Shown: positions 1 to 45,839, counted from the stretch's first letter. The stretch is DNA of 46,585 nucleotides from a virus (IMGVR_UViG_3300044910_000838:1-46585), one strand, 5' to 3'. Made by a program: numbers and translations. Notes: generated by a model from the letters alone, not told the origin.

Positions 1-80
1 AAATGAAATTGAATAGTAAAATAAGATTTATCTTCTATACCATCATTTTCTTTTAATAAGAATGATTTAAAGTTTTGCAT
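1..80 (-). CDS. Tandem-array paralogue, N-terminal fragment cut by window edge
   Basis: The first 26 codons are visible and begin MQNFKSFLLKENDG, the same start as the other array members, so this is the next gene of the array running off the left edge. Its ATG lies inside the end of the upstream gene (14-nt overlap), exactly as at every other junction in the array. No function can be assigned; the middle and the expected conserved tail are outside the window. Confidence 0.8.
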   Translation of the reverse strand, partial: MQNFKSFLLKENDGIEDKSYFTIQFH

Positions 81-792
81 ATTGTCTAAACCCGTTAGTA
101 ATTAATTCTTCTTGACATTCTAATATATCTCTATCTATTTTTGCATGATAATTTATAATATCCATTACAATACTTAATTCTGTTAATTTATTACCAGCAA
201 TTCCATTATGAGATATTCTATTAAAATTCTTTGTTAGTAAAAGTGATAATAACGGAGTATTAGTTAAAAGTTTTTCTGCAACACTTGCTCCAAAATTTAA
301 AGATAATGAAGTATCTGATTCAAAAGATTTTGAAAAATCCTTAGCATTAAATTTAGAAGCAGCATTAATAAAAATATGATTAGTTTTAACATTACAATTA
401 AATTCTTCTAAACTTGGAGTATATAAATCTAAATCGTTGTATGATCCTCGCAAATTTTCTAGTGTTTTAATAGATTTTAATTTAAATTCAAGTTCATCAG
501 CAATAATAGGAGCACCCCAAATATTTGTTAATGTTTCACTTCTTATAGTTAAATCGTTAGCAGTATCAAAATGAAATGGTAATCTAGTTTTATCTAATAG
601 TGTATTATCATAGTAAAAAGAAGCACGGGATTTAATAACATTTACAGAATGTTTATAAACAGCAAAATCATTAATATGATTTCTTCCATCATATTGAATT
701 GCTTCTTTTATTTGTTTAGAAGATGTTAAATGCCAAGGAGCTAATTTAATATTAGTATTTTCTGTTATTAAATATTCTTTAAAATTTTGCAT
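67..792 (-). CDS. Tandem-array paralogue (MQNFK...LECQEELITNG family), 241 aa
   Basis: The protein starts MQNFKEYLITE and ends DRDILECQEELITNGFRQYAKL. Residues between these ends share little with neighbours apart from a hydrophobic stretch (LLSLLLTKNFNRI) before the tail, which corresponds to the ILGLLxIxxL element of other members. The middle keeps weak leucine-rich-repeat-like spacing (TIRSETLTNIWGAPIIADEL). Start and stop each overlap a neighbour by 14 nt, so translation is probably coupled through the array. The C-terminal ECQxELI motif is, from memory, seen in uncharacterised leucine-rich-repeat-like proteins of T4-like phages. Function unknown. Confidence 0.8.
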   Translation of the reverse strand: MQNFKEYLITENTNIKLAPWHLTSSKQIKEAIQYDGRNHINDFAVYKHSVNVIKSRASFYYDNTLLDKTRLPFHFDTANDLTIRSETLTNIWGAPIIADELEFKLKSIKTLENLRGSYNDLDLYTPSLEEFNCNVKTNHIFINAASKFNAKDFSKSFESDTSLSLNFGASVAEKLLTNTPLLSLLLTKNFNRISHNGIAGNKLTELSIVMDIINYHAKIDRDILECQEELITNGFRQYAKL

Positions 793-1405
793 ATTGTTTT
801 AATCCATTAGTAATTAGTTCTTCCTGACATTCTAATATATCTCTATCTTCTAAATGTTTATAAGCAATATTAGCCCATTTAGGTGTAATAGTATTTACGT
901 GAAAATAAATATTTACACTTTTATCAATTTTAAATATATCTAATATTCCTCCAGTTATATTATCAACATTGCTAAAAAATAATTCTATGCATTCTTTATC
1001 AATTACTTTACTTATTCCAGTTAATGAAAAATTAGAAGGACAAATAATTTCAATTGTTTCCCATTGTAATTTTTGATTAGGTAATCCATGAGATATTAAA
1101 TTAGTATTTCCGCCTTCAATATCATTATCAAATTGTAATACTATTGCATTAACTTCTTCTAATAACATATCATAAATATTAGTTAATTCATGATTAGAAA
1201 TATTAGTTAATTTTAAAACTTTACAAGTAATTTGTTCTCTATCTATAGAGATGTCAAATTGATAATCTTCATTTAATGATTCAACTTTATCTTGAAGAAA
1301 TTGAACCTCTCTTCTATTGAGAGAATTAGTAGCATGAAATACTACTTCAAAAGTATAAGAAGAAGTTTGTTCTTCTTTTAATAAAAATTGTTTAAAGTTT
1401 TGCAT
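779..1405 (-). CDS. Tandem-array paralogue, 208 aa
   Basis: Starts MQNFKQFLLKEE and ends DRDILECQEELITNGLKQYAKF. The middle has no leucine-rich-repeat spacing; residues about 15-100 look like an alpha/beta domain (FEVVFHATNSLNRREVQFLQ). A matching layout is seen in the member at 2104-2685: both contain a SFGLP/TYKLEWQ- or GLPNQKLQWE-type segment followed by GGxLxxxxID and NTIxPKW, so these two form a subfamily within the array. The 14-nt overlaps with both neighbours are preserved. Function unknown. Confidence 0.8.
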   Translation of the reverse strand: MQNFKQFLLKEEQTSSYTFEVVFHATNSLNRREVQFLQDKVESLNEDYQFDISIDREQITCKVLKLTNISNHELTNIYDMLLEEVNAIVLQFDNDIEGGNTNLISHGLPNQKLQWETIEIICPSNFSLTGISKVIDKECIELFFSNVDNITGGILDIFKIDKSVNIYFHVNTITPKWANIAYKHLEDRDILECQEELITNGLKQYAKF

Positions 1406-2117
1406 ATTGCCTTAATCCATTAGTAATAAGTTCTTCCTGACATTCTAATACATCTTTATCGCCTTGCAAATGTCTTCCAACAATATTTACCGCTTTAATG
1501 AATTTTGGATATTTAGTTAATTCACCAGTAGTTGCAGTTGGTGAATAACCTATATCATTACATCCAGGAATAAGCAAAAATCCTAAGAAGGAATCTCCTA
1601 AATTAGAGAATGGTAAAACAAAATGATCATAATCTTCAGTAGATGGATTTATTTTTTTAACTATTTTATTAATACGGTGAAACGAAGCAATAGAAGTTCC
1701 ACGTAATATATATTTAGAAGCACTTTCTGGAAAATAATCTAAAGTTGAAATATTATCATTACCAGAAATGCTAAATTTACCTTCAACAGAAGTTGGAGCT
1801 CCTTTTAAAGAAAATAAATCACAATCTCCTGCAAAAAAATGTCTAGATATATGACCAAATTGACAAGGAAATTTTCTTAAATCAGTTTCTTCTTCTAATG
1901 GCAAACATTCAGGAAATGAAGAAATTTGAACATAAGAACAATTTAATTTTCCATAAGTAATTATTGGATTTAAAATTTGACCTTGTTCATGAGGTGATTG
2001 AACATTATATTTTTTTAATACTGCATGTCCTTGGTCTGTAGCCCATTCGCGAATATCTTGTTCTGGCCAGAAATCATTATGTTCTTCCTGAAGTAAATAT
2101 TTTTTAAAATTTTGCAT
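1392..2117 (-). CDS. Tandem-array paralogue, 241 aa
   Basis: Starts MQNFKKYLLQEE and ends GDKDVLECQEELITNGLRQYAKL. The centre keeps a degenerate repeat (LFSLKGAPTSVEGKFSISG, then ISTLDYFPES) that matches the LxSLxGxPxxVxGxFxxxxN unit of the clearer members at 44014-45124. A FLGFLLIPGCNDI segment precedes the tail. Both ends overlap neighbours by 14 nt. Function unknown; a binding role for the repeat part is only inference. Confidence 0.8.
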   Translation of the reverse strand: MQNFKKYLLQEEHNDFWPEQDIREWATDQGHAVLKKYNVQSPHEQGQILNPIITYGKLNCSYVQISSFPECLPLEEETDLRKFPCQFGHISRHFFAGDCDLFSLKGAPTSVEGKFSISGNDNISTLDYFPESASKYILRGTSIASFHRINKIVKKINPSTEDYDHFVLPFSNLGDSFLGFLLIPGCNDIGYSPTATTGELTKYPKFIKAVNIVGRHLQGDKDVLECQEELITNGLRQYAKL

Positions 2118-2685
2118 ATTGTCTTAATCCATTAGTAATAAGTTCTTCCTGACATTCTAAAACATCTCGTTCATTTTCTAAATGTTTATCTATAATAGCT
2201 AACCATTTAGGTTCAATTGTATTAAAAGTTAAAAATGGAATTTGGTCTATTAATAATAAACTTAAAACTCCACCAACAACATTATGGCATTGTGAAATTA
2301 CTAATGATTGACATGAACCAATAACTTTATCCAATCCAGATATTGATTGATTAGGTTCTACACTAAGTAAAATATTTTGCCATTCTAATTTATATGTAGG
2401 AAATCCAACACTTTGTAATTCACTTTCAAAATAATAAACTTCAAATAATTCATCGCACATACTAACAATTACATTTTCAATATGTTCTAAAGCTTGTTTA
2501 TTACCATTTTGTTGGTTTAGTTGTTTAAAAGATATATGAACATTTTTGATAAACAAATTAACTTCAATTTTATATTTTTTAAAAAATTGTTTTAAATTGG
2601 CTTTAAATTGTTTAACATCTGCGAAACCTTTATAATTTATATCTATATGAAATTCAACATTTCCAAGTTCTTTAGAGTTTAGCAT
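2104..2685 (-). CDS. Tandem-array paralogue with diverged start, 193 aa
   Basis: I place the start at 2685 (MLNSKELGNVEF) rather than the ATG 15 nt upstream. This ATG sits at the same place as MQNFK in the other copies and restores the common 14-nt overlap with the upstream stop; MLNSK is then a drifted MQNFK. The protein ends NERDVLECQEELITNGLRQYAKF. The middle resembles the member at 779-1405 (GFPTYKLEWQNI, GGVLSLLLIDQI, NTIEPKW) and has no leucine-rich repeats. Function unknown. Confidence 0.75.
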   Translation of the reverse strand: MLNSKELGNVEFHIDINYKGFADVKQFKANLKQFFKKYKIEVNLFIKNVHISFKQLNQQNGNKQALEHIENVIVSMCDELFEVYYFESELQSVGFPTYKLEWQNILLSVEPNQSISGLDKVIGSCQSLVISQCHNVVGGVLSLLLIDQIPFLTFNTIEPKWLAIIDKHLENERDVLECQEELITNGLRQYAKF

Positions 2686-3295
2686 AATGTCTATAACCAT
2701 TAGTGATTAGTTCTTCTTGACATTCTAACACATCTCTATCACTTTGTAAATGTTTATTTATAATTTCACAAATATTTCCACTATAATCATAATCATCATT
2801 AGTATATACTTCTTCTAATTTTTTTATATTTAATAATCCTAAAAAATTATTTTTAGTAATACTTCCACTAATTATAATATTCTTACATTGTAATAAATGT
2901 TTATGAATTCCAGAAAGTGATATTAGGTTTGGACATTTAGAAATATCTAAATCTTCTGTTATAATTTTAGTAATACCTTCAAAAGAAGAAAAATTATTTC
3001 TACTAGCGTTAACATTTCCTTCAACTTGTTCTGGGAAATTTTTAAAAGATTTTAATTTTAAATTACTACAAGTAAAATCTGAATGATAATCATCTATTAA
3101 ATTAGCAATTGGAACAATAATTTCATCATAATGAACTAAATCTGATTGATAATATTCTAACGTAAAAGAATTAGTTGTTCTTAATAATTTCCCATCATCT
3201 GTTATTTTCCAAATGACAGGATATTCTTTAACCAGTTGAATAATAGATGGAGGTATATTATTTTGTTCTTTTAAAAATAATTCTTTTACTTTCAT
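2672..3295 (-). CDS. First member of the left tandem array, 207 aa
   Basis: This is the promoter-proximal gene of the left array. It starts MKVKELFLKEQ instead of MQNFK, and its ATG overlaps the RimK-like gene's stop by one base (TAATG), so the array appears translationally coupled to RimK. The tail is DRDVLECQEELITNGYRHYAKL. The middle has leucine-rich-repeat-like units (LKLKSFKNFPEQVEGNVNAS, then ISLSGIHKHL) followed by NFLGLLNIKKLEEV. Function unknown. Confidence 0.8.
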   Translation of the reverse strand: MKVKELFLKEQNNIPPSIIQLVKEYPVIWKITDDGKLLRTTNSFTLEYYQSDLVHYDEIIVPIANLIDDYHSDFTCSNLKLKSFKNFPEQVEGNVNASRNNFSSFEGITKIITEDLDISKCPNLISLSGIHKHLLQCKNIIISGSITKNNFLGLLNIKKLEEVYTNDDYDYSGNICEIINKHLQSDRDVLECQEELITNGYRHYAKL

Positions 3296-4908
3296 TATTC
3301 TTCTTCTTTGGTAGATACTGTGGCGCTAATTGCAGAAATATTATTCATTGCAGGATTAATTAATAATGCTGCTTGAGCTAATGTATTTCTACCTAATAGA
3401 ATAGCGTATTTCATATGAGAACGTTCATTAACATTTAATTCAATGTTATGTAATACAGTTTCATTAACTGTCATATCTACTCGAATAACTGCTCGTTCAT
3501 TTGTTTTATCACTATCAGCTTGTCTAATTTTAGCAATACGTAATAAATGAAATTTATAAACTGTTCCATTAAATTTGAAAGAAACTTGATTCGTATCTTT
3601 ATCAATTTTAATATCTTCACCTGCAATTGAAGAAACATTAGCTCCAGTATCAACTCTAGCTTCAATAGGAACTTCATCATTAAAGTGTTTGATAACAACA
3701 TTAGTTACAGTTCCAATAATCTGTTCATGAGCGTTATCTAATAATTCAGGATTAATTATATTAGCATGAGGGTTCATTGATTTTTCATCAGATTTTTCTT
3801 CTTTTTTATCTAATTCAGCAGCTTCTTCTCTATCCATATCAACTTCTTTAGTTCCAGTTTCTTCTTCCTCTTCTTCCTCTTCAGTAGGACCTGATTCTTT
3901 TTCAGCAGAAGTTGTAAATTCTAATTCGCCTAATTCAGGTTGTTTATCATCTTCACTTTTATCTGATTGTTTATCATCATCTTCTTCTTTACTATTATCT
4001 GTTGAAGTTTCTTCTTTATCTTCTTCTTTTCCTCCATCTATTAATGAAGAGCAATAATCAATAACTGTTTTAGCAACATCAATATCAACAACTTTTTGCA
4101 TACTTTCAAAACCAGGAGAACCATTAACTTCTAAAATAACAACATCATCTCCATCCATAATATAATCAACTGCAGCGAAATCAATACCAATTGCATCAGC
4201 TGCTTTTTTACATACTTCTAATTCTTGTTCTGAAGGTTTATGAACTTTTAATTCAGCACCTTGATGAGCATTACTTCTAAAAGAACCTTCAGGAACTGTT
4301 CTCATCACAGTTGCTAAAGGTTTTCCACCTAAGAATAAAATACGACCACTTTCTTTATGTTCAATAAATTCTTGTAACATAAATTCAGTTCCTGATTTTA
4401 TCAATTGCTGTACTATAGATACTAAACTAGCTCGACTATCTGCTCTGATTACCCCGATACCTTGTGTTCCATAGATAGTTTTAACAATAACTGGAAATTT
4501 ATTCCCAATAGCTTCTACTGCATGGTCTATTTGTTCATCATTAGTAAATAATGTTGTTTTAGGTGTTTTAATACCTTCAGCATTTAATTTAATTTGTGTA
4601 TCAATTTTATTAGAAGCAGTTCTTAATGCAGGACCTTTATTAAGGACCTTTACACCCATTTTATCTAAGTGATTAATGATAGAAATTTTATAATCTAAAT
4701 TAGTTTCAGATAATCTAGGAATACATAAATCAGCACCTTTATATTTGGTGCCTTTATAAGAAATATATTCTTCATTTGTTAGATTGATATAACATTCTTC
4801 CGGGTCAATAACTTCAACATCGTATCCTGCTTCCTCTGCCTTTTTAACAAGTTCTTTAGGAGCCCAATTTTCTCGTTCAGTAGTAAGAAGTAATAATTTT
4901 TTAGACAT
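3295..4908 (-). CDS. RimK-like ATP-grasp ligase fused to RimB/retropepsin-like domain, 537 aa
   Basis: Residues 1-293 form a RimK-type ATP-grasp enzyme: KGPALRTASNKIDTQ, the ATP-binding segment VIVKTIYGTQGIGV (about 140-153), and the metal-binding LEVNGSPGF (259-267). RimK enzymes add glutamate to protein C-termini (ribosomal protein S6 in E. coli). An acidic linker, residues 294-375, leads to a C-terminal domain with ARVDTGANVSSI (D420-T-G-A) and ILLGRNTL, typical of the retropepsin-like 'ATP-dependent zinc protease'/RimB family often encoded beside rimK. The start at 4908 (MSKKLLLL) is preferred because the longer ORF would overlap the upstream gene. Here ligase and partner are one polypeptide. 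The natural substrate (host ribosome or virion protein) cannot be told. Confidence 0.85.
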   Translation of the reverse strand: MSKKLLLLTTERENWAPKELVKKAEEAGYDVEVIDPEECYINLTNEEYISYKGTKYKGADLCIPRLSETNLDYKISIINHLDKMGVKVLNKGPALRTASNKIDTQIKLNAEGIKTPKTTLFTNDEQIDHAVEAIGNKFPVIVKTIYGTQGIGVIRADSRASLVSIVQQLIKSGTEFMLQEFIEHKESGRILFLGGKPLATVMRTVPEGSFRSNAHQGAELKVHKPSEQELEVCKKAADAIGIDFAAVDYIMDGDDVVILEVNGSPGFESMQKVVDIDVAKTVIDYCSSLIDGGKEEDKEETSTDNSKEEDDDKQSDKSEDDKQPELGELEFTTSAEKESGPTEEEEEEEETGTKEVDMDREEAAELDKKEEKSDEKSMNPHANIINPELLDNAHEQIIGTVTNVVIKHFNDEVPIEARVDTGANVSSIAGEDIKIDKDTNQVSFKFNGTVYKFHLLRIAKIRQADSDKTNERAVIRVDMTVNETVLHNIELNVNERSHMKYAILLGRNTLAQAALLINPAMNNISAISATVSTKEEE

Positions 4909-4912
4909 AATA

Positions 4913-5314
4913 TTATACGTAATTTTTTGGATGGGAAATACCAGCAAGTTCTCTATATCTTTTTAAATCAGATTTATCTTCAGTTTTGCTTTCAACATAA
5001 GTAACTGGTTGTTGGCAACTATTTAATAATTCTTGATATAAAGATTTTTTACACATTTTTAATTTTTTAATTATAGTTGCGCTTTTACCTTCACAAGATA
5101 CATTTAAAATAATATCAAAGAATATATCATTACTACCTTCTGGATTCTGTATAGAAGGTAATTCTTTAACATAAGCATATAAATTAGGACAAGGTTCAGC
5201 AGCAGGTTCTTCTGGTTGAGGTGTATATTCAACAGGAATTTCTGGTTGTTCTACAGGTGTATGATAATCTGTTGATATCATTGGTTGTGAAGTAAAGGAT
5301 ATTGTATCATTCAT
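4913..5314 (-). CDS. Hypothetical protein, Pro/Glu-rich N-terminus, 133 aa
   Basis: The first 45 residues are disordered-looking and rich in Pro, Glu and Gln (VEQPEIPVEYTPQPEEPAAE). The rest is mixed, with four cysteines (PCPNL, NVSCEG, KMCKKS, NSCQQP) and a basic C-terminus. I do not recognise the family. It ends four bases before the RimK-like start, so the two are probably co-translated. Confidence 0.7.
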   Translation of the reverse strand: MNDTISFTSQPMISTDYHTPVEQPEIPVEYTPQPEEPAAEPCPNLYAYVKELPSIQNPEGSNDIFFDIILNVSCEGKSATIIKKLKMCKKSLYQELLNSCQQPVTYVESKTEDKSDLKRYRELAGISHPKNYV

Positions 5315-15051: not shown

Positions 15052-15528
15052 TTAAGTTTTGATTAAATTGAGTAAATTATTATTCGTGGAAGAATGTTTA
15101 TCAAAAATAGTTCCACCAATATGTAATGGTTCTTTATTATGAAATTTATCTGATTTAGGTTTTAATGTTAATCCTTTTGTTTCATCAACCTCTATTAAAT
15201 CAGATACTCGTAAAGCAATAGGGTCCCATTTCATTAAAATATTAGAACCTACAGCTCCAGAATTTCGTGTTTTTAAGAATTCAAAAATGTATTCTCCAGT
15301 AGCCCTCATTTGGTCAGTTTGAATAATAGCAATCATTAAATCTGCACTTTGTATCTTTGAAAATCCACCTTGTATGTGTCCTTGATTTACTTTTTCTGCC
15401 TCAATTGAACTATTATGAACTAAAATCCCATTTGCATAAAACAGATGATTTCCATCTACTTCTATGTCAATTGTTTCTTCTTCATCTAATTCTTCTATTT
15501 CAATAATTTCGTCTATAAAAAAATTCAT
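15052..15528 (-). CDS. gp41-like replicative helicase, C-terminal half with C-intein, 158 aa
   Basis: Residues 1-39 (MNFFIDEIIEIEELDEEETI..., ending GNHLFYANGILVHN) are a C-terminal split intein and very like the published gp41-type C-inteins. From S40 the sequence is the last 119 residues of a DnaB/gp41 helicase (GGFSKIQSADLMIAIIQTDQM, NILMKWDPIALRVSDL). The ORF opens further upstream, but I take ATG 15528: it has a GAGGAG site just upstream and overlaps the endonuclease stop as TAATG. With the N-half at 16802-18091, trans-splicing would give a 451-residue helicase, close to T4 gp41 in length. Confidence 0.9.
   Translation of the reverse strand: MNFFIDEIIEIEELDEEETIDIEVDGNHLFYANGILVHNSSIEAEKVNQGHIQGGFSKIQSADLMIAIIQTDQMRATGEYIFEFLKTRNSGAVGSNILMKWDPIALRVSDLIEVDETKGLTLKPKSDKFHNKEPLHIGGTIFDKHSSTNNNLLNLIKT
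15412..15528 (-). other. C-terminal split intein (39 aa) of the gp41 helicase
   Basis: It contains intein blocks F (TIDIEVDGNHLFYANG) and G (ILVHN, followed by Ser as the +1 nucleophile). The penultimate His and terminal Asn required for splicing are present. Its partner is the N-intein encoded at 16805-17095. Confidence 0.9.
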
Positions 15529-16724
15529 TATGTCTCCTCTTGTAAAAAATTTAAACATTTATCAATTACCAATTGCTTATTTTCTTTGTATTCTTTTTCC
15601 CAAACTATCATTATATCATAGTTTTTTGATTTTATTATGTTTATTCTCTTTTCATCTTGTAAATGGAGTTCTTTAACAGAAACATCTTTTCTAAATGGAT
15701 GAGGACAATCTTCCATACAATATATTTCTGGGTTCCCATGCCAAATATCACCAAAAAATTCTATTATTTTTTTCTTAGATTTCACTAAAAAATCTGGAAA
15801 AATCATTTTTTGCTCCATAATTATTCTTTCATCTTTATTCAAAAATATGCAATATTCGTTATTGCCATAATACACATCATCTTCTTGAAAATCCATTTGT
15901 TGTTGTTGCATTATTGCTTCAAATAATTCATTAGATATTTTTGAACTTGTTCTAGCTTGCCAAGTTATTTTTGAATATCGAATTCTCCCTTCTTCTTCTC
16001 CAAATAATTCTATTAAATTATCTAAATTATGCATCAATTTTGTTTTTAAACAGAACTCATTATATTTTTTAGTTCCTATTTCTTCACCTTCTCTATCAAT
16101 AAAAGACATCAAACTATTATTATCCCATCTTTTTTGAGCAATTTCATTTGCTTTACTTTCTCCATACGTATCAATGAGATATTGTTTTGACTGACTATAA
16201 AGTCTTTTATCTCTGCTTTTATTCCAACGTAAAATTCCTTCTTCCTCACCATACTTCTTTTTGAAAGTATTAATAGAAAATGAATTATAATCTCTACCTT
16301 CTGATTTTCTATCTTGATATGTTTTATTGCGTTTAATTTTATATTGTTCCCAACGAATAGGTCCTTCAATTTCTCCATGAACTAAAATATAATTTTCTAA
16401 AGAAGCAGATCTTCGTTTCAATTTTTCTAGTCCGAGTTCTTCTCCATATAATCTAATATAATCATCTCTTGTGACAGTTGTCTTTTTTGTTTTTTCTCTA
16501 TGTTTGAGTGTTCCTAATTCTTTACCATATCTGAGTATATAAGCATTTAAACTTGAAGAATTTCTACCTAATAATATTATTTGTTCTAATCTAAATAAAA
16601 GTTCATCATTGCATAATTTAACACCTCCTTCAGCTAATCTAGACAAATGATTTTTTAGATTTGCTTTTGATACAACAATACTTTTATTTTTACATAACTC
16701 AAATATATTATTCAAATCGTACAT
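15528..16724 (-). CDS. Homing endonuclease, Vsr/EDxHD-like, nested between helicase halves, 398 aa
   Basis: The N-terminal two thirds carry at least six copies of a YGEExGxxRW/K-type repeat (YGKELGTLKHRE, YGEELGLEKLKR, HGEIEGPIRWEQ, YGEEEGILRWNK, EGEEIGTKKYNE, FGEEEGRIRYSK), a likely DNA-binding array. The C-terminal 110 residues (FPDFLVKSKKKIIEFFGDIWHGNP...DEKRINIIKSKNYDIMIVWEKEY) match the Vsr-like PD-(D/E)XK nuclease fold of the endonuclease family described with fractured gp41 genes (Dassa et al. 2009). Start: ATG 16724 (MYDLNNIF), with GGGAG eleven bases upstream; the longer reading frame uses TTG. Its GGGAG lies in the arm of a long hairpin. Its stop overlaps the helicase C-half start. 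Confidence 0.88.
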   Translation of the reverse strand: MYDLNNIFELCKNKSIVVSKANLKNHLSRLAEGGVKLCNDELLFRLEQIILLGRNSSSLNAYILRYGKELGTLKHREKTKKTTVTRDDYIRLYGEELGLEKLKRRSASLENYILVHGEIEGPIRWEQYKIKRNKTYQDRKSEGRDYNSFSINTFKKKYGEEEGILRWNKSRDKRLYSQSKQYLIDTYGESKANEIAQKRWDNNSLMSFIDREGEEIGTKKYNEFCLKTKLMHNLDNLIELFGEEEGRIRYSKITWQARTSSKISNELFEAIMQQQQMDFQEDDVYYGNNEYCIFLNKDERIIMEQKMIFPDFLVKSKKKIIEFFGDIWHGNPEIYCMEDCPHPFRKDVSVKELHLQDEKRINIIKSKNYDIMIVWEKEYKENKQLVIDKCLNFLQEET

Positions 16725-16730
16725 TTTACA

Positions 16731-16776
16731 ATAAGCTCCCAAAATATTATAATAAATAATATTTATGGGAGCTTAT
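16731..16776 (-). promoter_or_regulatory. Hairpin that buries the endonuclease ribosome-binding site
   Basis: ATAAGCTCCCA (16731-16741) and TGGGAGCTTAT (16766-16776) pair perfectly over 11 bp, and AAATATTAT (16742-16750) with ATAATATTT (16756-16764) adds nine more, giving 20 bp with a five-base loop and one bulged base. On the minus-strand RNA the 3' arm contains the GGGAG of the endonuclease. No T run follows, so it is not a terminator. Confidence 0.8.
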
Positions 16777-16784
16777 AAAGTAAA
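16756..16784 (-). promoter_or_regulatory. Sigma70-like promoter inside the hairpin
   Basis: TTTACT (16779-16784), 17-nt spacer, TATTAT (16756-16761). It belongs to the same family as six other sites in the window. Transcripts would begin near 16749, after the 5' arm of the hairpin, so the endonuclease RBS would be free. Confidence 0.5.
16760..16767 (-). promoter_or_regulatory. Late-promoter-like CATAAATA inside the hairpin
   Basis: One mismatch to TATAAATA. A start about six bases downstream would also omit the 5' arm of the hairpin. T4 I-TevI uses this arrangement. Confidence 0.45.
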
Positions 16785-16801
16785 TATATCCCCAATAGCT
16801 A

Positions 16802-18091
16802 TTAAATTTTATTATCAATTAAAATTTTATGGCCTACTGTTAATCCTTGACAAATACTAATATCTCCTAACATTATACCATTATCATCAAAAATAGGTAA
16901 TGTATGTCTATTTGATACTTTAACTTCTTTTCCACTTTTAGTTTTAATTTTAAAAACTTTTTGTTTGCTTATTGGTGTTTTAGCTAAAACTTTATTAAAA
17001 CCTAAGTCACATTTAATTTTATCCCCAATTTTAACATCTTTAATTGGTATTTTATTTCCATTTTCTAATTCAATTAATGAATTAATTTCAACACATCTTC
17101 CTAATTGGGATGCTGTAATAATAGCACAATCGTAATCAAACCCGATTGCACGGCATTCTTCAGAAACGAATTTATCTTTTAGCCATATATTCTCACTACT
17201 AATATTTCTGTTTGACGCCATTAAATCCAGGTAATCAATAATGATTGCATCTGGTTTAAATGCATGAGTTTGTTCAAATTCCTTTAAATAAGCTCTAATA
17301 TGATTAGCTGTTGTTGTACTTTCAGGCATTCTTTTAATAAAAAGTTCGCCTTTATTTTTGTGTTTAAAATGATCAACACCTGCTACAACTTTACTAATAT
17401 TATCTAAAATATCAGCTTGAGATATTGATGTAACCATACTATCAAATCTTTTTGCAACAATTCTATCAGCTAATTCTAACGAAATATAAATTACATTATA
17501 CCCTTGTTCAATTAAGTTAATACCTAAATTGGACATAACAATGGATTTTCCTATACCACTAGAAGCGGCCCAAAGTAATAATTCTTGACGACCGATAATA
17601 CCTCCACCTAATGCTTCATCAACATCCTTCCAACCAGATTTAATCATTGGAGAATTATTTAATAAATCTCTTAATCTTGCTTCAACATTTTCAAAATAAT
17701 TAATACCTAAATCTCTATTCAAACTAACTTGAATAGCAGCTTTTAAATTCATTTCAATTGTGCCAAAATCCTGTTTTTCAAGTAAAGCAGGAGCAGCAAG
17801 AATAGCTTCTTCTATCGCTTTATTTCGACAAAATGTTTCTATTTCAGTTGCAACATATTCTTGTTCAGCTTTTTCTAATGGTATTTTCGTAATTTCTAAT
17901 TTCGTTTCTGCTTTTATAATAGGAGCAGTTGGAAGTGTATGATATTTTTCAAAATATTCTTGTATATATGCAACTGATTTTTTTAAATATGGGTCAAAAT
18001 AATTTGGTTTAATAATTGAATTGCATTTAGCAAATAAATCTGGATTCGATAATAATAATTCAAATACAATACGCTGTTTTTCTAAATCCAT
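16802..18091 (-). CDS. gp41-like replicative helicase, N-terminal half with N-intein, 429 aa
   Basis: Residues 1-332 are the N-terminal and most of the RecA-like domain of a DnaB/gp41 helicase: Walker A AASSGIGKS (175-183), YISLELADRIVAKR (202-215), and Walker B IIIDYLDL (283-290). After ITASQLGR the sequence switches at C333 to an N-intein that runs to the stop at residue 429. The remainder of the helicase is at 15052-15528. Gene order N-half, endonuclease, C-half keeps all three co-oriented. The hexameric helicase unwinds DNA at the phage fork and pairs with the primase at 19032-19973. Confidence 0.92.
   Translation of the reverse strand: MDLEKQRIVFELLLSNPDLFAKCNSIIKPNYFDPYLKKSVAYIQEYFEKYHTLPTAPIIKAETKLEITKIPLEKAEQEYVATEIETFCRNKAIEEAILAAPALLEKQDFGTIEMNLKAAIQVSLNRDLGINYFENVEARLRDLLNNSPMIKSGWKDVDEALGGGIIGRQELLLWAASSGIGKSIVMSNLGINLIEQGYNVIYISLELADRIVAKRFDSMVTSISQADILDNISKVVAGVDHFKHKNKGELFIKRMPESTTTANHIRAYLKEFEQTHAFKPDAIIIDYLDLMASNRNISSENIWLKDKFVSEECRAIGFDYDCAIITASQLGRCVEINSLIELENGNKIPIKDVKIGDKIKCDLGFNKVLAKTPISKQKVFKIKTKSGKEVKVSNRHTLPIFDDNGIMLGDISICQGLTVGHKILIDNKI
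16805..17095 (-). other. N-terminal split intein (97 aa) of the gp41 helicase
   Basis: Begins C333 (CVEINSLIELENGNKIPI, block A), continues KIGDKIKC and a block-B-like VSNRHTLPI with its His, and ends LTVGHKILIDNKI. The catalytic Cys1 is present. The length fits N-inteins of the gp41 class. Confidence 0.9.
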
Positions 18092-23109: not shown

Positions 23110-24411
23110 ATGTCCAGCAAAAGTATTTATTCATTTAAAAATGACTATTCACCTTCTAATTTATCTTTTATTCCATATACTTATGTTATAAAACATAAAA
23201 AAAGCGGTAAATGTTATTATGGAGCAAAATATTCTTCCAATGCAAATCCTGAACTATTTTTTAAACATTATTTCACATCTTCTAATATAGTGCATCTATT
23301 ATTGGAAAATGAAGGTATTGAAGGTTTTGATTTTGAAATAAGAAAATGCTTCAAAAATGTTGCAGATTGTTTAAAATGGGAACAAACTGTATTGAGAAGA
23401 TTAAATGTTAAACATAAAGATATTTGGTTAAATAAAGATCAACATCAACAAAGTGCAAACAATTTAAATAAAATTTTAATTTCTAATGAAGAATTAAATA
23501 TTTGTATTAGATGGCCAAAAGATATAGAAATACCTAAAGGTTGGATTAAAGGTAATATAACAACTAAAAATAAAAAAATATCTTATTCTAATAGAAAATG
23601 GTATCATGATCCGTTAACAGGTAAAAATTATCATATAGATCCATCTAAAGCAGATTTATTTAAATTGATTTCTGGAAGAAATGCAAAAAACACTAAATCT
23701 AATTCTGAAAAACTTAAAAAACGAAATCTTATTAATATAAATAATGGATTAGAAAATAAAATGATTTCTATAAATGAACCAATTCCTGAAGGTTGGATTA
23801 AAGGTAGATTATTTAGTGGAATAATTAGAATAACTAATGGAATAGAAAATAGACATTTTAAAATATCTCCAGGTATAAAAATACCAGACGGTTATTGGAA
23901 AGGAAAAACTAATTTAGAAAAAGTAAATCGAAAAGTTCCTAAAAAATTTAAACATATAACTAATGGTACAATTGATTGTTTATTATATGAAAATGAGCAA
24001 ATGCCAAATGGGTTTTATTATAAAGCTGTTAGTAATATCAACAAAAATTTTTACTGTTGTCCTCCAACACCTAAAATAATTATCAATAACGGAATTAAAT
24101 CAATAAAACATCCTAAACATATGCCTATTCCAAAAGGATGGACATTAGGATATGTTAAAAAACAAAAACTCACTTTAAAAAGTAAATTATCAGTTTTTAA
24201 AAATATTTTTACAGCAGAAACAAGATTATTCAGTTCTGATTTTAAAAATGATAATTGGAAAAAATATAATCAATCAAAATTTAATCAATCAAAATCTGCC
24301 CCAAATAAAGGAAGAATAAGAATAGTTAATTTAAGTTCTGGTAAAATTAAATATATTAAACCAAATGACAAATTACCAAATGGGTATGATTTTTATACAA
24401 ATATAAAATAA
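23110..24411 (+). CDS. Free-standing GIY-YIG-type homing endonuclease, 433 aa
   Basis: The N-terminus fits a GIY-YIG nuclease: YTYVIKHKKSGKCYYG (YTY at 23-25, YYG at 36-38), then CLKWEQ with the catalytic Glu (E91) and IWLNKD with an Asn. The rest carries six spaced copies of a 'xxNG(x)n xxIPxGWxKG' unit (for example EPIPEGWIKGR, IKIPDGYWKGK, MPIPKGWTLGY), as in other phage homing endonucleases. It is on the opposite strand from its neighbours, has AAGGAG six bases before ATG, and its own late promoter, all signs of a mobile gene. The target site is unknown. Confidence 0.8.
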   Translation: MSSKSIYSFKNDYSPSNLSFIPYTYVIKHKKSGKCYYGAKYSSNANPELFFKHYFTSSNIVHLLLENEGIEGFDFEIRKCFKNVADCLKWEQTVLRRLNVKHKDIWLNKDQHQQSANNLNKILISNEELNICIRWPKDIEIPKGWIKGNITTKNKKISYSNRKWYHDPLTGKNYHIDPSKADLFKLISGRNAKNTKSNSEKLKKRNLININNGLENKMISINEPIPEGWIKGRLFSGIIRITNGIENRHFKISPGIKIPDGYWKGKTNLEKVNRKVPKKFKHITNGTIDCLLYENEQMPNGFYYKAVSNINKNFYCCPPTPKIIINNGIKSIKHPKHMPIPKGWTLGYVKKQKLTLKSKLSVFKNIFTAETRLFSSDFKNDNWKKYNQSKFNQSKSAPNKGRIRIVNLSSGKIKYIKPNDKLPNGYDFYTNIK

Positions 24412-28803: not shown

Positions 28804-30465
28804 TTAATCAGAATGTAAAACATTTTGTTTTTTTAATTCTTCTAACTTTTTCTTCCATGATTTCAATTCTTTCTGTAAAGCTTTTCGTTCTGAATACCAA
28901 TATTGCAGTACACCAGGAATAATACCTTGTTTTCCTGATTGATCAAAAATTGTTCCATAAGCAGATACTGCCCATTTCTGTTTTCTTAAATATTCATTCC
29001 ATTGTTTACCAGTTTTTGTAATATATTGACCATTAATTAATGCTGTATGAGGATAATCATCTTTAGCAAAAATTCCACGCCAATCATATTCTTTAGACAT
29101 AGCAGAAAAGAATGTATCTAGATTTACTCCAGCTTTATTACTGTCTTTAATTAATTGTTGAACATCTTCTAAAGTTTGCATTCTTTCAAATGTTTCAGGT
29201 GTTTCAAACTGACCAATTAAAGTTTCTGGAGAAATATTTAAACTTCTTAATACTGAAGGATAAAGAGAGTTAATATCAACACTTCCAACCCATTCATGTA
29301 ATCCTCTATTAGGTGTTAATACAATAGCACCTTCAACTTTTTCATGAGAACCATGAACGTCTTTATCTTTAACAATTACATTTAAATGATTGTGGGCGTA
29401 ATTAGTAGTTCCTGTATCAACATATCTAGTAGTTCCTAAAATTGCATCAAATGGTACAGTATTTTCATGAGCCATTTGATTAACTAATGCAACAAAAGAA
29501 AACTTTTTATCAAGTTTAACAAGAAGAAAAACGTCAATTACATTATAAGTAATGAATTGTTCAAAATTATTATAATACAAATCTCTTAAAGAACCATGAT
29601 ATTCTAATTTAGATAAACCTAATTCTTCTTCACAAATATTAGCTAATGAATAAGATGCTCTTCCTTCAAATGTAAATTTCTTAAACATAGCAAGATAATC
29701 TAAATGCGACCTTCCCATTAGTGTTACAACTTGCTCTTTTTTTCCAAATCTTTCAACTTCACGAATTCTTGGTTTTCCAGCGCCAGTAAAACATAATTGT
29801 TCTGCTGCTCTTTCACCAAGAATTTGAACAATTCGATTATAAATATATGGAATATCAAAAAACTCGCTATTCCATCCAGAAATAAAATCACAATCATCAA
29901 TTAATTCTAAAAAGATTGATAATAATTCTGCTTCAGATTGAACAAATATAATTTCTAGATTTTCAATAGCTTCATAATTATATTTTGTTGTATCTGGAAT
30001 GAATTCTTTTCCGTCCCAATTAGGTGGCGGTAATGCTAAAACATAGAATGTATCAAGCCATTGATTATATAAAGTGATTGCATTAATTGGACATCTTGCA
30101 TCTTTAGGTGTTGCGAAACCTTGATCGTCTACATCTACCTCAATATCAAAAAATGAATAATTTAAATTTGGAATTGTTTTTCCATAATAATTATTCATCA
30201 ATACTTTATCTATAATAGAAAAATCACTTTCATATTTTACTGGATATTCAGCGCATGCTAATTTAAAATCATCTCTATTTGAAAAAGATAATTTTTTTAA
30301 TGATTGTTCTCCATACATTGATTTATAAGGACCATCACCTTCAACATAAAAATAATATGGATTAGGATATCGTGTTGCTTCACGTTTAGTTCCCACTCGT
30401 TCCCATACAATGATTTCTTCAGTTCCATAATCTTCAACAACTCCAACATAATTAGGTTCTGTCAT
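28804..30465 (-). CDS. B-family DNA polymerase, N-terminal half only (gp43-like), 553 aa
   Basis: The exonuclease is complete: Exo I FFDIEVD (D107, E109), Exo II GWNSEFFDIPYI (D204), Exo III YNVIDVFLL (Y307, D311). The palm begins with motif A, VDINSLYPS (D397). The frame then stops in the fingers (WYSERKALQKELKSWKKKLEEL..., residue 553), before motif B (KxxxNSLYG) and motif C (DTDS). T4 gp43 has 898 residues, so about 350 are missing. There is no intein at the break and no C-terminal half anywhere in this window. Either the polymerase is split into two genes, as known in some Aeromonas T4-like phages, or this is a remnant. Confidence 0.9.
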   Translation of the reverse strand: MTEPNYVGVVEDYGTEEIIVWERVGTKREATRYPNPYYFYVEGDGPYKSMYGEQSLKKLSFSNRDDFKLACAEYPVKYESDFSIIDKVLMNNYYGKTIPNLNYSFFDIEVDVDDQGFATPKDARCPINAITLYNQWLDTFYVLALPPPNWDGKEFIPDTTKYNYEAIENLEIIFVQSEAELLSIFLELIDDCDFISGWNSEFFDIPYIYNRIVQILGERAAEQLCFTGAGKPRIREVERFGKKEQVVTLMGRSHLDYLAMFKKFTFEGRASYSLANICEEELGLSKLEYHGSLRDLYYNNFEQFITYNVIDVFLLVKLDKKFSFVALVNQMAHENTVPFDAILGTTRYVDTGTTNYAHNHLNVIVKDKDVHGSHEKVEGAIVLTPNRGLHEWVGSVDINSLYPSVLRSLNISPETLIGQFETPETFERMQTLEDVQQLIKDSNKAGVNLDTFFSAMSKEYDWRGIFAKDDYPHTALINGQYITKTGKQWNEYLRKQKWAVSAYGTIFDQSGKQGIIPGVLQYWYSERKALQKELKSWKKKLEELKKQNVLHSD

Positions 30466-35077: not shown

Positions 35078-37183
35078 TTAAAATAAAATTGGCATTGGCT
35101 CATCCATTTCATCAGCTGTTTCATTATCAGAAGAATAATCATTTTCATCATATTTATACATGAGTTTATGAGCTTCAGGATCAAAAGAAGCAACATACTT
35201 AATTAATCTAACAATTAACACTAATGCCATAACTGCGTCATCAGTAGCTCCCTGTTTAGCAGCATAACTTCCACCCGAAGCTATAAAATTTTTCAATTCA
35301 AATATTGTAATTTCAGAATTTATAATTAATCCATTCTTAATCTTTTCCAATAATGTCTTCATTTGCAAACAAGCCAATACTTTTGATTTATTAGTAGTTG
35401 CCATTCCTAATTTTCCAGGAACATCATTAATCAATTCTGCAAATTCTGGTTGTTCTTCATCTGTCTCATATAATGCAGCAATAGCTTCTCCAATACTATT
35501 TCTTTCAAACGTCCACATTACCTCAGGTCTTTTATTACCGATAGGTTTTGATAACTTTTCTAATATCCACTTTAACTTGCCATATAATCCTGGGATATTT
35601 AAATCATTAGAACGATATTGACCAATTTGAACTAATCCTGGAAATGTAAAAATATCTATTACAGAAAAATCTGCTCCTCTACCAGTCGCAACATCACAAG
35701 CAACTAAATACATAGGATTTCCTTTTAACTCATCCCAAAACTTAAAACCATTATCTTCAAATAATACAGAAGAATATCTAAATTCATTTAATCGTAATGA
35801 ACTAACTAATAATGCATCTGAAGATAAAAATTCACAATCTAATTCAACTTTAGCTTTTAATTCTCCTAATTTACCAACCATTTCTTCATAATATCCAGAA
35901 CCAGGTCCTCTTTCAGGATGTCTATGATATAAAACAGTTTTATTTACAAAAGAATTTAATCCTGCACATGAACTTCTCCATAATGAAGCAAATAAATCAC
36001 TATCACCATTAGGAGTAGTTGTTAGAATAAATTTACCACCTGTTGATAAAGAAGGAGTAATAGATGCCCACATTTCGTCTTGAATTCTTTTAGATACGAA
36101 TGCAATCTCATCAATAAACAGAATACTTGGTGAACCACCTCGGCCAGTTTTTTCAGTGGTTGCTTCTGATTTTATAACAGAGCCATTATCAAACTCTATA
36201 CTAGTACGATTGTAGAATTTGCAACCTGCTTTTAACCAATTTGGTAATTCTTCATAAGAGAATTTTATTCTACCCATGATTTCAGTAGCATGCGCCATCG
36301 CTTTAGAAGCAATAACACATAATTTATCTTTTTGGAAAGTAGCCATCCACAATATATAGATGGCAGCTACTGATGTATTATGTGATAAAATTCCATTTGT
36401 ATAATAAACATGCTCTTCATCATCAAGTTCTAAATCATACATATTTTCATAATTATCATATTTAATTAAATCAACAACTTTGCTAATACCTTTTATAGTT
36501 TTTAAATATGTATTTGAATTTAAATCTTTTAAAAATAGTTCTTTATTATCTTTATCAATAACAATATGATTATCTGCACCTTTTAAATATAAACCATTTT
36601 CTAATATAACTTCATAAAGTTTATATTTTACGGTTTTAAAACTTGATTTTATTTTTGACAGTCCTAAAGGAGTATCAACATAACAATTGTTAATACTAGT
36701 TTGTTGTATAAATTTTAAATTACCTTCATAATCATTTATAGCAACAGTTATAGGATTATTTAAATTATGAAATTGTTCTATAGATATTTCTTGTTTATCT
36801 AAACAATATCTTAATATTTTATTTTTTAATCTGCTAAAAAAAGATTTTTTGGCATAAAGTTCCTTATCTAAAATCTTTAATAATAATATTTTGAACCAAT
36901 TTTTTGGTTTAGTATATATATTTATTAAAGTTTCAGAAGAAACACATTTACCTAATTGTCGACTAGCCAGTAATAAAACATCTTTATTATTATGTATGAT
37001 ATCAATCATTTCTTCTTGATATTCATATAAGTGGAATGGAACAGTGCCTTTAACAGGATGTTGAATTTTTACATAAGTTTTTATAAAATAAATTGGGTCA
37101 TTTGTGCATTTTTCTAATTCTTCAACTTTATCTAAATCATATTCATCTTGAATGTTAGCTCTTTTAATATATTGATTTGCCAT
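35078..37183 (-). CDS. Terminase large subunit (gp17-like) with intein in Walker A, 701 aa
   Basis: The ATPase P loop SRQLGK (74-79) is cut from its Thr (T270) by a 190-residue intein. After splicing the motif would read SRQLGKTSVA, as in T4 gp17. Walker B is ILFIDEIAF (D358, E359), followed by TTTPNG. The nuclease domain has ACDVATGRGADFSVID (D497, D505), WTFERNS and GATDDAVMALVL. Spliced length would be 511 residues against 610 in T4. The motor cuts and pumps DNA into proheads. Without splicing the ATPase could not work. A CATAAATA box lies upstream. Confidence 0.92.
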   Translation of the reverse strand: MANQYIKRANIQDEYDLDKVEELEKCTNDPIYFIKTYVKIQHPVKGTVPFHLYEYQEEMIDIIHNNKDVLLLASRQLGKCVSSETLINIYTKPKNWFKILLLKILDKELYAKKSFFSRLKNKILRYCLDKQEISIEQFHNLNNPITVAINDYEGNLKFIQQTSINNCYVDTPLGLSKIKSSFKTVKYKLYEVILENGLYLKGADNHIVIDKDNKELFLKDLNSNTYLKTIKGISKVVDLIKYDNYENMYDLELDDEEHVYYTNGILSHNTSVAAIYILWMATFQKDKLCVIASKAMAHATEIMGRIKFSYEELPNWLKAGCKFYNRTSIEFDNGSVIKSEATTEKTGRGGSPSILFIDEIAFVSKRIQDEMWASITPSLSTGGKFILTTTPNGDSDLFASLWRSSCAGLNSFVNKTVLYHRHPERGPGSGYYEEMVGKLGELKAKVELDCEFLSSDALLVSSLRLNEFRYSSVLFEDNGFKFWDELKGNPMYLVACDVATGRGADFSVIDIFTFPGLVQIGQYRSNDLNIPGLYGKLKWILEKLSKPIGNKRPEVMWTFERNSIGEAIAALYETDEEQPEFAELINDVPGKLGMATTNKSKVLACLQMKTLLEKIKNGLIINSEITIFELKNFIASGGSYAAKQGATDDAVMALVLIVRLIKYVASFDPEAHKLMYKYDENDYSSDNETADEMDEPMPILF
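36377..36946 (-). other. Mini-intein in terminase, 190 aa, no endonuclease domain
   Basis: Begins C80 (CVSSETLINIY, block A); block B is LKGADNHIVI with its His; block F ENMYDLELDDEEHVYYTNG; block G ILSHN, followed by Thr as the +1 nucleophile. All residues for cis-splicing are present. About 70 extra residues (KNWFKILLLKIL..., SIEQFHNL) separate block A from the next strands, as in other phage terminase inteins. No LAGLIDADG or HNH motif is seen. Confidence 0.9.
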
Positions 37184-44010: not shown

Positions 44011-44018
44011 TATTTATA
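44011..44018 (-). promoter_or_regulatory. Late promoter TATAAATA for gp4-gp15
   Basis: Exact match to the T4 late consensus on the minus strand, 29 nt before the gp4 ATG. It overlaps the stop of the last gene of the right array. Confidence 0.65.
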
Positions 44019-44565
44019 ATTTGGCGTATGAACTTAATTTATTAGTTATTAATTCTTCCTGACATTCTAATATGTCTCTATCAGATTTGAGATGTTTATC
44101 TATAATTTCTTTTATGCTAATTAATGTTCTATCTCTAGCAAATGCTGTTGAATTTCTCATAAAAGCTATAGCACGCAATTGATTTATTTGTAGCAAACCT
44201 AATATATGTGAAGTTATGCTTTCAGGCAAATATAAAACACTTTTAATATAACCACCTGAATATTGTTTACCAATACCTTGTAAATTTTCAATAGGATTAT
44301 TATGACAATAAAGACTTGAATTAATTTTTAAAGCGCAGAATTTTAGAGAGGTTAATTGATTATATTGGCAAAAATAATCTCCATGGACTTCTTTTGGCCC
44401 ACCTTCTAAAGAAGTTAATTCGTTAGAATTTACAGCAAATTGTCCTTTAACTATTTTAGGAACTTCGAAAGGACAATCTAATAAAGATCCTTTTAATTTT
44501 GGATATAAATCCATTAAATAAACATCATCTTTTCCTTCTTTCAAGAATGATTTAAAATTTTGCAT
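44014..44565 (-). CDS. Last member of the right tandem array, LRR-like, 183 aa
   Basis: Starts MQNFKSFLKEGK and ends SDRDILECQEELITNKLSSYAKL, the most drifted tail of the set. It has three clear repeat units (LLDCPFEVPKIVKGQFAVNSN, ELTSLEGGPKEVHGDYFCQYN, QLTSLKFCALKINSSLYCHNN), then ILGLLQINQLRAI. No further array gene follows. Function unknown. Confidence 0.8.
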   Translation of the reverse strand: MQNFKSFLKEGKDDVYLMDLYPKLKGSLLDCPFEVPKIVKGQFAVNSNELTSLEGGPKEVHGDYFCQYNQLTSLKFCALKINSSLYCHNNPIENLQGIGKQYSGGYIKSVLYLPESITSHILGLLQINQLRAIAFMRNSTAFARDRTLISIKEIIDKHLKSDRDILECQEELITNKLSSYAKL

Positions 44566-45124
44566 AGTATCTAAATCCTTTAGTAATTAATTCTTCCTGA
44601 CATTCTAATATATCTCTATCTGAAGATAAATGTTTATTTATTATATCCTGTATATCTCGATTTGAGTTAAATCTAAAATTTTTTAATCCTTTTATTTTAA
44701 GTACTCCTAAAATGTTTGAAGTGATTTTTGTGGTGTCGCAATTTAATACATCACCAATCTCTAATAGATAATCTTTACCAATTCCTTTTAATGAAGTAAT
44801 TTTTGTTCCTGCACAGTCGAATGAACCACCAACTTTTTTTGGTGCAAACTCTAATGAAGTGATTTTAGAAAACCAGCATAAATAATTTCCACCAACTTCT
44901 ATGGGTCCATATTCCAATGAAGTGATTTTTGAATTTGCACAATTAAATTCTCCATCAACTATAGTCGGACATCCTTTTAATGATTTTAAACTTTTGACAT
45001 CGCAAATAAAGTTTCTACTGACATGTGAAGGATATGATTGGATTAAAAATCCTTCTTGCGAAACATGTTTTGGAAAAAGTAAAAAGTTTTCTTCTTCTGT
45101 TAGAAAAGATTTAAAGTTTTGCAT
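44552..45124 (-). CDS. Tandem-array paralogue, clearest LRR-like member, 190 aa
   Basis: Starts MQNFKSFLTEEE and ends DRDILECQEELITKGFRYYAKF. Four repeat units of about 20 residues are evident (LKSLKGCPTIVDGEFNCANS, KITSLEYGPIEVGGNYLCWF, KITSLEFAPKKVGGSFDCAG, KITSLKGIG). Each has LxSLxxxPxxVxGxFxC, the unit of phage leucine-rich-repeat-like proteins. ILGVLKIKGLKNF then leads to the tail. Function unknown. Confidence 0.82.
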   Translation of the reverse strand: MQNFKSFLTEEENFLLFPKHVSQEGFLIQSYPSHVSRNFICDVKSLKSLKGCPTIVDGEFNCANSKITSLEYGPIEVGGNYLCWFSKITSLEFAPKKVGGSFDCAGTKITSLKGIGKDYLLEIGDVLNCDTTKITSNILGVLKIKGLKNFRFNSNRDIQDIINKHLSSDRDILECQEELITKGFRYYAKF

Positions 45125-45839
45125 ATTGTCTTAAACCATTAGTAATTAATTCTTCTTGACATTCTAACACATCTCTATCCTGAACTAAATGTTTATTAAC
45201 AATAACTTGAGCTTTTAATTTGTTGTTAATATCAGGATATCTATGTTGAGAAGAACCAGTAATTAAAAAATTCTCCAATTTGTTAATTAAAAGAAATGAT
45301 AAAAATCCATTATAATTATAAGGTAATATTATTTTTCTAACTTGTTTAACAGTTTTATTAATATGATTAGAGATAGGCATATCTATCCAATTAAATAATA
45401 ATCCTTTTATTGTAGAAGGACAACCTTCAAGAGATTTAATTCCATGACATTCCATAACATTAAAAGCACCTTTAACTATATCTGGTAATCCTATTAAAGA
45501 TGTTATATTTAATGTTTCTAATGATAAATCTCCATTTCTTGTTGGATTTTTCCATTCTTTAAATTGAAATGGTAAATATTTTCCACCTTGATAATCAATT
45601 AGTAAACTATCATCAATAAATGGCCAATCGCTAAGTATTTCAAATTTTCCATTTTTCATACTACCCTGAAGAAAAACTTCACCAGAAGAAGGTTCTACTT
45701 GAGAATAAAATATTTTCCCATCTAATTCATCTTCTTGCCAATTTTTAAGCTTTGCTAATTCTTCATTAGTTGTTATTTGCCAAGGATATTGTTTTTCCTC
45801 ATCATTTTCTTTTAATAAGAATGATTTAAAGTTTTGCAT
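45111..45839 (-). CDS. Tandem-array paralogue, 242 aa
   Basis: Starts MQNFKSFLLKEND and ends DRDVLECQEELITNGLRQYAKL. The centre has weaker repeat units (LNITSLIGLPDIVKGAFNV, GIKSLEGCPSTIKGLLFNW) and FLSFLLINKLENFL before the tail. Overlaps both neighbours by 14 nt. Function unknown. Confidence 0.8.
   Translation of the reverse strand: MQNFKSFLLKENDEEKQYPWQITTNEELAKLKNWQEDELDGKIFYSQVEPSSGEVFLQGSMKNGKFEILSDWPFIDDSLLIDYQGGKYLPFQFKEWKNPTRNGDLSLETLNITSLIGLPDIVKGAFNVMECHGIKSLEGCPSTIKGLLFNWIDMPISNHINKTVKQVRKIILPYNYNGFLSFLLINKLENFLITGSSQHRYPDINNKLKAQVIVNKHLVQDRDVLECQEELITNGLRQYAKL

What the first reader, a model, noticed from the sequence alone, without database searches (positions are those of the whole stretch)
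15052..18091. Fractured gp41 helicase: split intein with a Vsr-like homing endonuclease gene between the halves
Seen directly: helicase N-half ends ITASQLGR then an N-intein (97 aa); helicase C-half begins with a 39-aa C-intein ending HN followed by Ser; a 398-aa Vsr/EDxHD-like endonuclease lies between, co-oriented. Known: this arrangement was described from marine metagenomes for gp41 helicases, and gp41 C-inteins read EELDExExIDIEVxGNHLFYANxILxHN as here. Inferred: the endonuclease spreads the cassette into intact gp41 alleles. Its length, repeats and tight coupling to the C-half (TAATG) make this a complete example in a phage context.
Basis: partly seen in the sequence, partly recalled or inferred. 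Interest (0 to 1): 0.85.

Follow-up and report, generated by a model that had tools for sequence, protein, structure and literature searches.

The report
Split-intein helicase with nested homing nuclease
A large phage's DNA-replication helicase gene is cut in two by a self-splicing protein element (a split intein) with a DNA-cutting 'homing' gene lodged between the halves; this is a clear new example of a parasite arrangement known since 2009, with an extra RNA switch in front of the cutter.

Summary
A DnaB-type (gp41-like) helicase of a jumbo-phage lineage is broken after ...ITASQLGR. The N-half ends in a 97-aa N-intein, the C-half starts with a 39-aa C-intein (HN/Ser), and a co-oriented 398-aa nuclease lies between. 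Removing the intein gives a 451-aa helicase colinear with intact relatives. The nearest relatives (57%, 52%) lack the insert, so empty sites exist. The joined intein's best solved relative is gp41-1. The nuclease has a C-terminal Vsr/EDxHD domain (E290-D311-H329-D357; fold matches Vsr and I-Bth0305I) behind 6-7 helical repeats.

Of 79 related IMG/VR loci, 71 have a C-intein just downstream, in about ten host genes. Nuclease clades follow the host gene, as expected of site-specific homing. This is the 'fractured gene' arrangement of Dassa et al. 2009: a new member, not a new kind. The insertion is at the QLxR/S position, three codons before the gp41-1 site.

Such leaders recur in the family (p 1e-13, covariation in RNR cassettes) and resemble I-TevI control. 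Splicing, cleavage and timing remain untested.

The parts
17096..18091 (-). Helicase (DnaB/gp41-like) N-extein, 332 aa, ends ITASQLGR
   Evidence: DnaB_C E 7.7e-17, phrog_19 E 2.9e-60, colinear with intact relatives
16802..17095 (-). N-intein, 97 aa + stop, starts CVEINS (Cys1), block-B-like SNRH
   Evidence: Intein_splicing/Hint matches; aligned to gp41-1; homologous N-inteins in L009-L071
16731..16776 (-). 20-bp RNA hairpin in the nuclease leader (5' arm 16776-16756, 3' arm 16750-16731); Shine-Dalgarno GGAG 16739-16736 lies inside the 3' arm
   Evidence: dG -28 kcal/mol, z -4.69, 0 of 200 shuffles as low; coordinates; family-wide test
16756..16784 (-). Promoter-like element overlapping the hairpin 5' arm: TTTACT-17-TATTAT, and CATAAATA (T4-late-like, one mismatch) at 16767-16760
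   Evidence: Pattern scan; TAAATA enriched in related leaders 30/59 vs 66/319; not proof of function
15528..16724 (-). Homing endonuclease gene (398 aa + stop): 6-7 YGEExG helical-hairpin repeats, then Vsr/EDxHD-like nuclease domain (about residues 258-398)
   Evidence: A3 alignment, profile to Vsr, AlphaFold2 mean pLDDT 84, Foldseek to 1CW0, 1VSR and 3R3P
15412..15528 (-). C-intein, 39 aa, MNFFIDEIIEIEELDEEETIDIEVDGNHLFYANGILVHN; start codon overlaps the nuclease stop (TAATG); its SD (GAGGAG) lies in the last nuclease codons
   Evidence: Intein_splicing E 4.1e-4, gp41-1 alignment, sequence
15052..15411 (-). Helicase C-extein, 119 aa + stop, begins Ser(+1)-SIEAEK
   Evidence: phrog_19 positions 511-589; colinear with intact helicases

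Best explanation
A mobile split-intein cassette sits in the replicative helicase gene of a jumbo phage. The two helicase precursors are translated separately, associate through the intein halves and trans-splice, leaving an ordinary 451-residue helicase, so the insertion costs the phage little. The gene between the halves encodes a site-specific nuclease: helical repeats bind DNA and a Vsr/EDxHD domain cuts. On co-infection it would cut the uninterrupted helicase allele near the QLxR/S codons, and repair from the interrupted copy would spread N-intein, nuclease and C-intein together. The nuclease is probably kept silent on the long helicase message by a hairpin over its ribosome-binding site, and made from a promoter inside that hairpin whose transcripts lack the 5' arm, as for T4 I-TevI. 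Shown here: anatomy, conserved intein and nuclease residues, the fold prediction, empty alleles, site-tracking of the nuclease family, and the predicted hairpin. Inferred: splicing, cleavage, homing and timing.
For: Observation exact. Joined intein matches gp41-1, with Cys1, an SxxH block B, HN and Ser+1 present. Intact nearest relatives L072 (57%) and L073 (52%), with 33/45 and 32/45 nt flank identity for L072. 63 viral contigs carry the gp41-like C-intein motif, nearly all in split helicase genes, most with GIY-YIG, HNH or Vsr nucleases between the halves and a few with none. 71 of 79 nuclease relatives have a C-intein just downstream. Host-gene label needs 21 changes on the nuclease tree vs 42.4 in shuffles, 0 of 200; the window pairs with L152, which has the same gene and site. 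Vsr/I-Bth0305I fold. Hairpin z -4.69; leaders z -2.47 vs -0.31 in controls, p 1e-13; compensatory changes in RNR-cassette leaders.
Against: No activity data. The window nuclease alone has no Pfam or PDB hit; the Vsr profile matches are weak (E 0.03-0.06) and the PDB fold matches have E > 0.1, although Vsr ranks first by fold. The hairpin is not kept in most helicase-site relatives (L153, L187, L192, L223). The promoter inside it is only a consensus match, and exact TATAAATA is not enriched in the window. The record is a fragment, so a second helicase elsewhere is not excluded.
Confidence: 0.85

Rival explanations
1. The split intein splices, but the nuclease no longer homes: a passenger kept because the C-half's ribosome-binding site is embedded in its last codons.
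For: The C-half SD lies in the nuclease's last codons. Several fractured helicases carry no nuclease between the halves (L012, L021, L037, L047, L070), so loss is tolerated.
Against: The window nuclease keeps a full-length open frame, all near-invariant catalytic residues, and a repeat array alignable end to end with L152.
Confidence: 0.12
2. The helicase is degenerate or pseudogenised by a nuclease insertion, and the intein remnants do not splice; an intact copy elsewhere in the genome does the work.
For: The record is a 46.6 kb fragment, so a second copy cannot be excluded.
Against: Both halves are open, start and end cleanly, keep helicase motifs and intein catalytic residues; the C-half has a strong ribosome-binding site; the gene is in the canonical primase-helicase position.
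Confidence: 0.04
3. The leader hairpin is a terminator-like or mRNA-stability element rather than an occluder of nuclease translation.
For: It lies between two genes on one message; hairpins are common between phage genes, and the terminase leader in this window folds as strongly (z -4.46).
Against: No terminator is called there. The SD is fully paired, and SD pairing is more frequent in nuclease leaders than in controls (p 0.0014).
Confidence: 0.25

Closest known systems
Fractured genes with split inteins and Vsr-like nucleases (Dassa et al. 2009, doi 10.1093/nar/gkp095)
   Same: Enzyme gene broken by a split intein with a free-standing nuclease gene between the halves; phage origin; gp41 helicase among the hosts; Vsr-like nuclease.
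   Different: This case is in a jumbo-phage DnaB at the QLxR/S position. The paper itself was not held: content is from memory and from papers that cite it.
gp41-1 split intein (PDB 6QAZ)
   Same: C-intein nearly the same motif (EELDE..IDIEV.GNHLFYAN.IL.HN), N-intein alignable throughout, E 4.9e-21.
   Different: Inserted three codons earlier (QLGR/S rather than QTTRSGY/S); intein on a separate, longer branch.
Aeromonas phage Aes123 PolB split intein with 'putative VSR endonuclease' (JN377899)
   Same: Same order N-half + N-intein, Vsr-type nuclease, C-intein + C-half in an isolated phage; its nuclease is the best viral fold match (I6ZRS3, E 4.1e-11).
   Different: Host gene is DNA polymerase, and the intein is of the cysteine-less type.
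I-Bth0305I, EDxHD homing endonuclease (PDB 3R3P)
   Same: Catalytic-domain fold (probability 0.84, TM 0.64 by target), E-D-x-H-D residue order.
   Different: Different DNA-binding region (YGEExG helical repeats here); described as a group I intron enzyme, not in split inteins.
T4 I-TevI and mobE/segB leader control (PMC2988022)
   Same: Hairpin over the nuclease SD with a promoter placed so that its transcripts lack the 5' arm.
   Different: Here in a split-intein cassette; promoter use untested; CATAAATA instead of TATAAATA.

Membership tests
Split intein (gp41 group) | N- and C-intein on separate polypeptides with Cys/Ser1, block B, terminal HN and Ser/Thr/Cys +1 | tested here: met
   Sequence and gp41-1 alignment; block B reads SNRH, cf. 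SEEH in gp41-1
Split intein (gp41 group) | Protein trans-splicing activity | not testable with these tools
   Needs expression
Fractured gene | One enzyme gene broken in two by a split intein with a nuclease gene between the halves | tested here: met
   colinear intact relatives
EDxHD/Vsr-like homing endonuclease | E-D-x-H-D catalytic residues in a Vsr-like fold | tested here: met
   E290, D311, H329, D357 conserved in the 26-member alignment; Foldseek 1CW0 prob 1.00, 3R3P prob 0.84 but E > 0.1; relatives hit MTES_1575 (11/26) and DUF559 (4/26)
EDxHD/Vsr-like homing endonuclease | Site-specific cleavage of the empty allele | not testable with these tools
   Indirect only: nuclease clades follow the insertion gene and empty alleles exist
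I-TevI-type leader control | Stable hairpin pairing the nuclease SD | tested here: met
   Predicted fold
I-TevI-type leader control | Late promoter whose transcripts lack the 5' arm | tested here: inconclusive
   TTTACT-17-TATTAT and CATAAATA lie where required, but TATAAATA is not enriched in the window

The most novel reading that the evidence does not exclude
The fracture itself may be explained by nuclease timing. A homing gene with its own stop-flanked leader, internal promoter and SD-burying hairpin can be silenced on the early helicase message and switched on later only if it is a separate gene, so acquiring this control module breaks a contiguous intein into a split one. L152, where the nuclease is still fused in frame to the N-intein, would be an intermediate or a reversal.
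Probability: 0.25. Interest if true: 0.65.

Novelty: new member of a known kind. Interest (0 to 1): 0.48.

Why it matters
The arrangement is known, but this complete case, its empty relatives and its two-ORF cousin (L152) make the origin and upkeep of split inteins directly testable. The survey suggests that one repeat-plus-Vsr nuclease family is found mostly in split-intein genes, across about ten phage replication, repair and packaging genes, with recurrent I-TevI-like leaders. It also supplies new split inteins for protein engineering.

Tried and rejected
A close-relative protein scan with the N-half found nothing; an alignment query was needed. Tandem DNA repeats in the nuclease gene: none; the repeats are protein-level only. 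Exact T4 late promoters TATAAATA: 8 found vs 16.4 expected in the window, so no genome-wide late-promoter claim. phmmer of the window nuclease against the PDB: no hit. The profile match to phospholipase A1 covers the helical repeats and linker, not the nuclease domain, and was dismissed. A full-leader MAFFT alignment of RNR cassettes was too gappy; the arms alone, chosen by eye and joined by an artificial linker, were used. Intein tree: the window joins L037 on long branches, so not used to argue descent. One Pfam batch failed on wrong coordinates. The Dassa 2009 paper is not in the library.

Full report
OBSERVATION. On the minus strand, the helicase N-half (18091-16802) is 332 aa of helicase plus a 97-aa N-intein; the nuclease runs from ATG 16724 to its stop at 15528; the C-half (15528-15052) is a 39-aa C-intein plus 119 aa of helicase. 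DnaB_C (E 7.7e-17) and Intein_splicing ring on the halves; PHROG phrog_19 covers both helicase parts in order, positions 160-507 then 511-589. The joined intein finds gp41-1 first in the PDB (6QAZ, E 4.9e-21). The joined extein aligns without a break at the junction to intact helicases of Vibrio, Xanthomonas, Sinorhizobium and Escherichia jumbo phages, which keep the order primase-helicase-small gene seen in the window (three small genes are inserted between primase and helicase in the window). The record is a 46,585-base IMG/VR fragment with one helicase.

EMPTY AND OCCUPIED SITES. A profile scan of viral contigs found 80 helicases. The two nearest, L072 (57%) and L073 (52%), are intact at the site (ITASQLGR|GAIEAEK); L072 matches the flanks at 33/45 and 32/45 bases. 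A degenerate DNA pattern for the C-intein gave 63 contigs, nearly all helicases with a split intein. Two insertion positions occur: after QTTRSGY (the gp41-1 position) and directly after QLxR (the window; from memory also gp41-8). On the intein tree the first forms one group; the window joins L037, but on long branches.

WHAT LIES BETWEEN THE HALVES. At the gp41-1 position the middle gene is GIY-YIG or HNH; at the QLxR position it is Vsr-type or, in L041 and L042, YGEExG repeats joined to an HNH-like domain; some have no nuclease. These type calls rest on sequence motifs. The window's own nuclease family was then followed: 79 loci, of which 71 have a C-intein just downstream by motif search, in gp41 helicase, ribonucleotide reductase, DNA polymerase, UvsX, UvsW, gp46-like ATPase, terminase, topoisomerase and others. 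Host-gene names were given from flanking motifs, not full annotation. These are the best-scoring 79 of 255 relatives, some are near-copies, and the query itself came from fractured genes, so the proportion is biased upwards. On the nuclease tree the host-gene label needs 21 changes against 42.4 in shuffles (0 of 200); RNR nucleases form one supported group and the window pairs with L152 (SH-aLRT 81). This is what nucleases specific for their own insertion site should show.

THE NUCLEASE. The 26-member alignment keeps E290, D311, E322, G325-D326, H329, N331-P332, D357 and W375-E376. Its profile reaches E. coli Vsr weakly (E 0.03-0.05); relatives hit MTES_1575 and DUF559. AlphaFold2 gives mean pLDDT 84, with the C-terminal domain at 93-98 in most blocks, and shows the YGEExG repeats as helical hairpins. 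Foldseek ranks Vsr first (1CW0, prob 1.00, E 0.12) and finds I-Bth0305I (3R3P, prob 0.84). The best viral model is the putative VSR endonuclease of Aeromonas phage Aes123, which sits between two intein-bearing pieces of its DNA polymerase. PMC12350094 describes related nucleases with several ~60-aa repeats and an EDxHD/Vsr domain as a large unrecognised group.

L152. In the closest relative at the same site, helicase-N, N-intein and nuclease are one open frame, and only the C-half is separate. It may be an intermediate, a reversal, or a sequencing artefact (single contig).

LEADER. Between the N-half stop and the nuclease start lies a predicted 20-bp hairpin (z -4.69, 0 of 200 shuffles) whose 3' arm holds the nuclease SD. 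Across the family, 59 nuclease leaders fold better than 319 control leaders (mean z -2.47 vs -0.31, p 1e-13); the SD is more often paired (p 0.0014); TAAATA is enriched (30/59 vs 66/319, p 4e-6). Start codons were chosen by rule, and related loci are not independent; taking one mean per host gene still gives p 8e-5. Six RNR-cassette leaders show 8 of 14 pairs with changes on both sides, covariation 0.495 vs 0.211 shuffled (arms chosen by eye). GIY-YIG cassettes at the gp41-1 site carry TATAAATA inside such hairpins. T4 I-TevI, I-TevII, I-TevIII, segB and Aeh1 mobE use this layout (PMC2988022). In the window the promoter is only a consensus match, and most helicase-site relatives lack the hairpin.

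PLACE IN THE LITERATURE. Dassa et al. 2009 described fractured genes with split inteins and a Vsr-like nuclease family; the paper is not held and I rely on memory and on citing papers. From memory its abstract mentions control elements brought in with the nuclease, so the leader finding may be partly known. The case is therefore a new member of a known kind.

Noticed in passing
window 36377-36946 (-): The large terminase carries a contiguous 190-aa intein at its Walker A (GK/C...HN/T) with no nuclease; relatives L167, L179 and L211 have split versions with a Vsr-type nuclease inside.
   Followed up: partly
window 28804-30465 (-): DNA polymerase B ORF holds only the N-terminal part (553 aa); no C-terminal half in the record. 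Aes123 also has a separate gp43A.
   Followed up: partly
window 67-3295 and 44014-46503 (-): Arrays of paralogous genes at both ends of the record with a shared start (MQNFKxFL) and tail (DRDxLECQEELITNGxxxYAK), variable middles; at least eight tails.
   Followed up: no
window 23110-24411 (+): Free-standing SegE-like GIY-YIG nuclease gene (PF19835, E 1.8e-4, below the curated cut-off).
   Followed up: no
L152 841-3820: Helicase-N + N-intein + nuclease in one open frame, C-half separate: a two-piece variant at the same site.
   Followed up: partly
L041 and L042: At the same QLxR intein site the YGEExG repeats are joined to an HNH-like domain instead of Vsr: an apparent swap of cutting domain on the same kind of DNA-binding array.
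   Followed up: partly
window 35078-37183 leader (-): The terminase gene leader folds as strongly as the nuclease leader (z -4.46).
   Followed up: no
window 3295-4947 (-): RimK-like ATP-grasp joined to a Zn_protease/retropepsin-like domain in one ORF.
   Followed up: no
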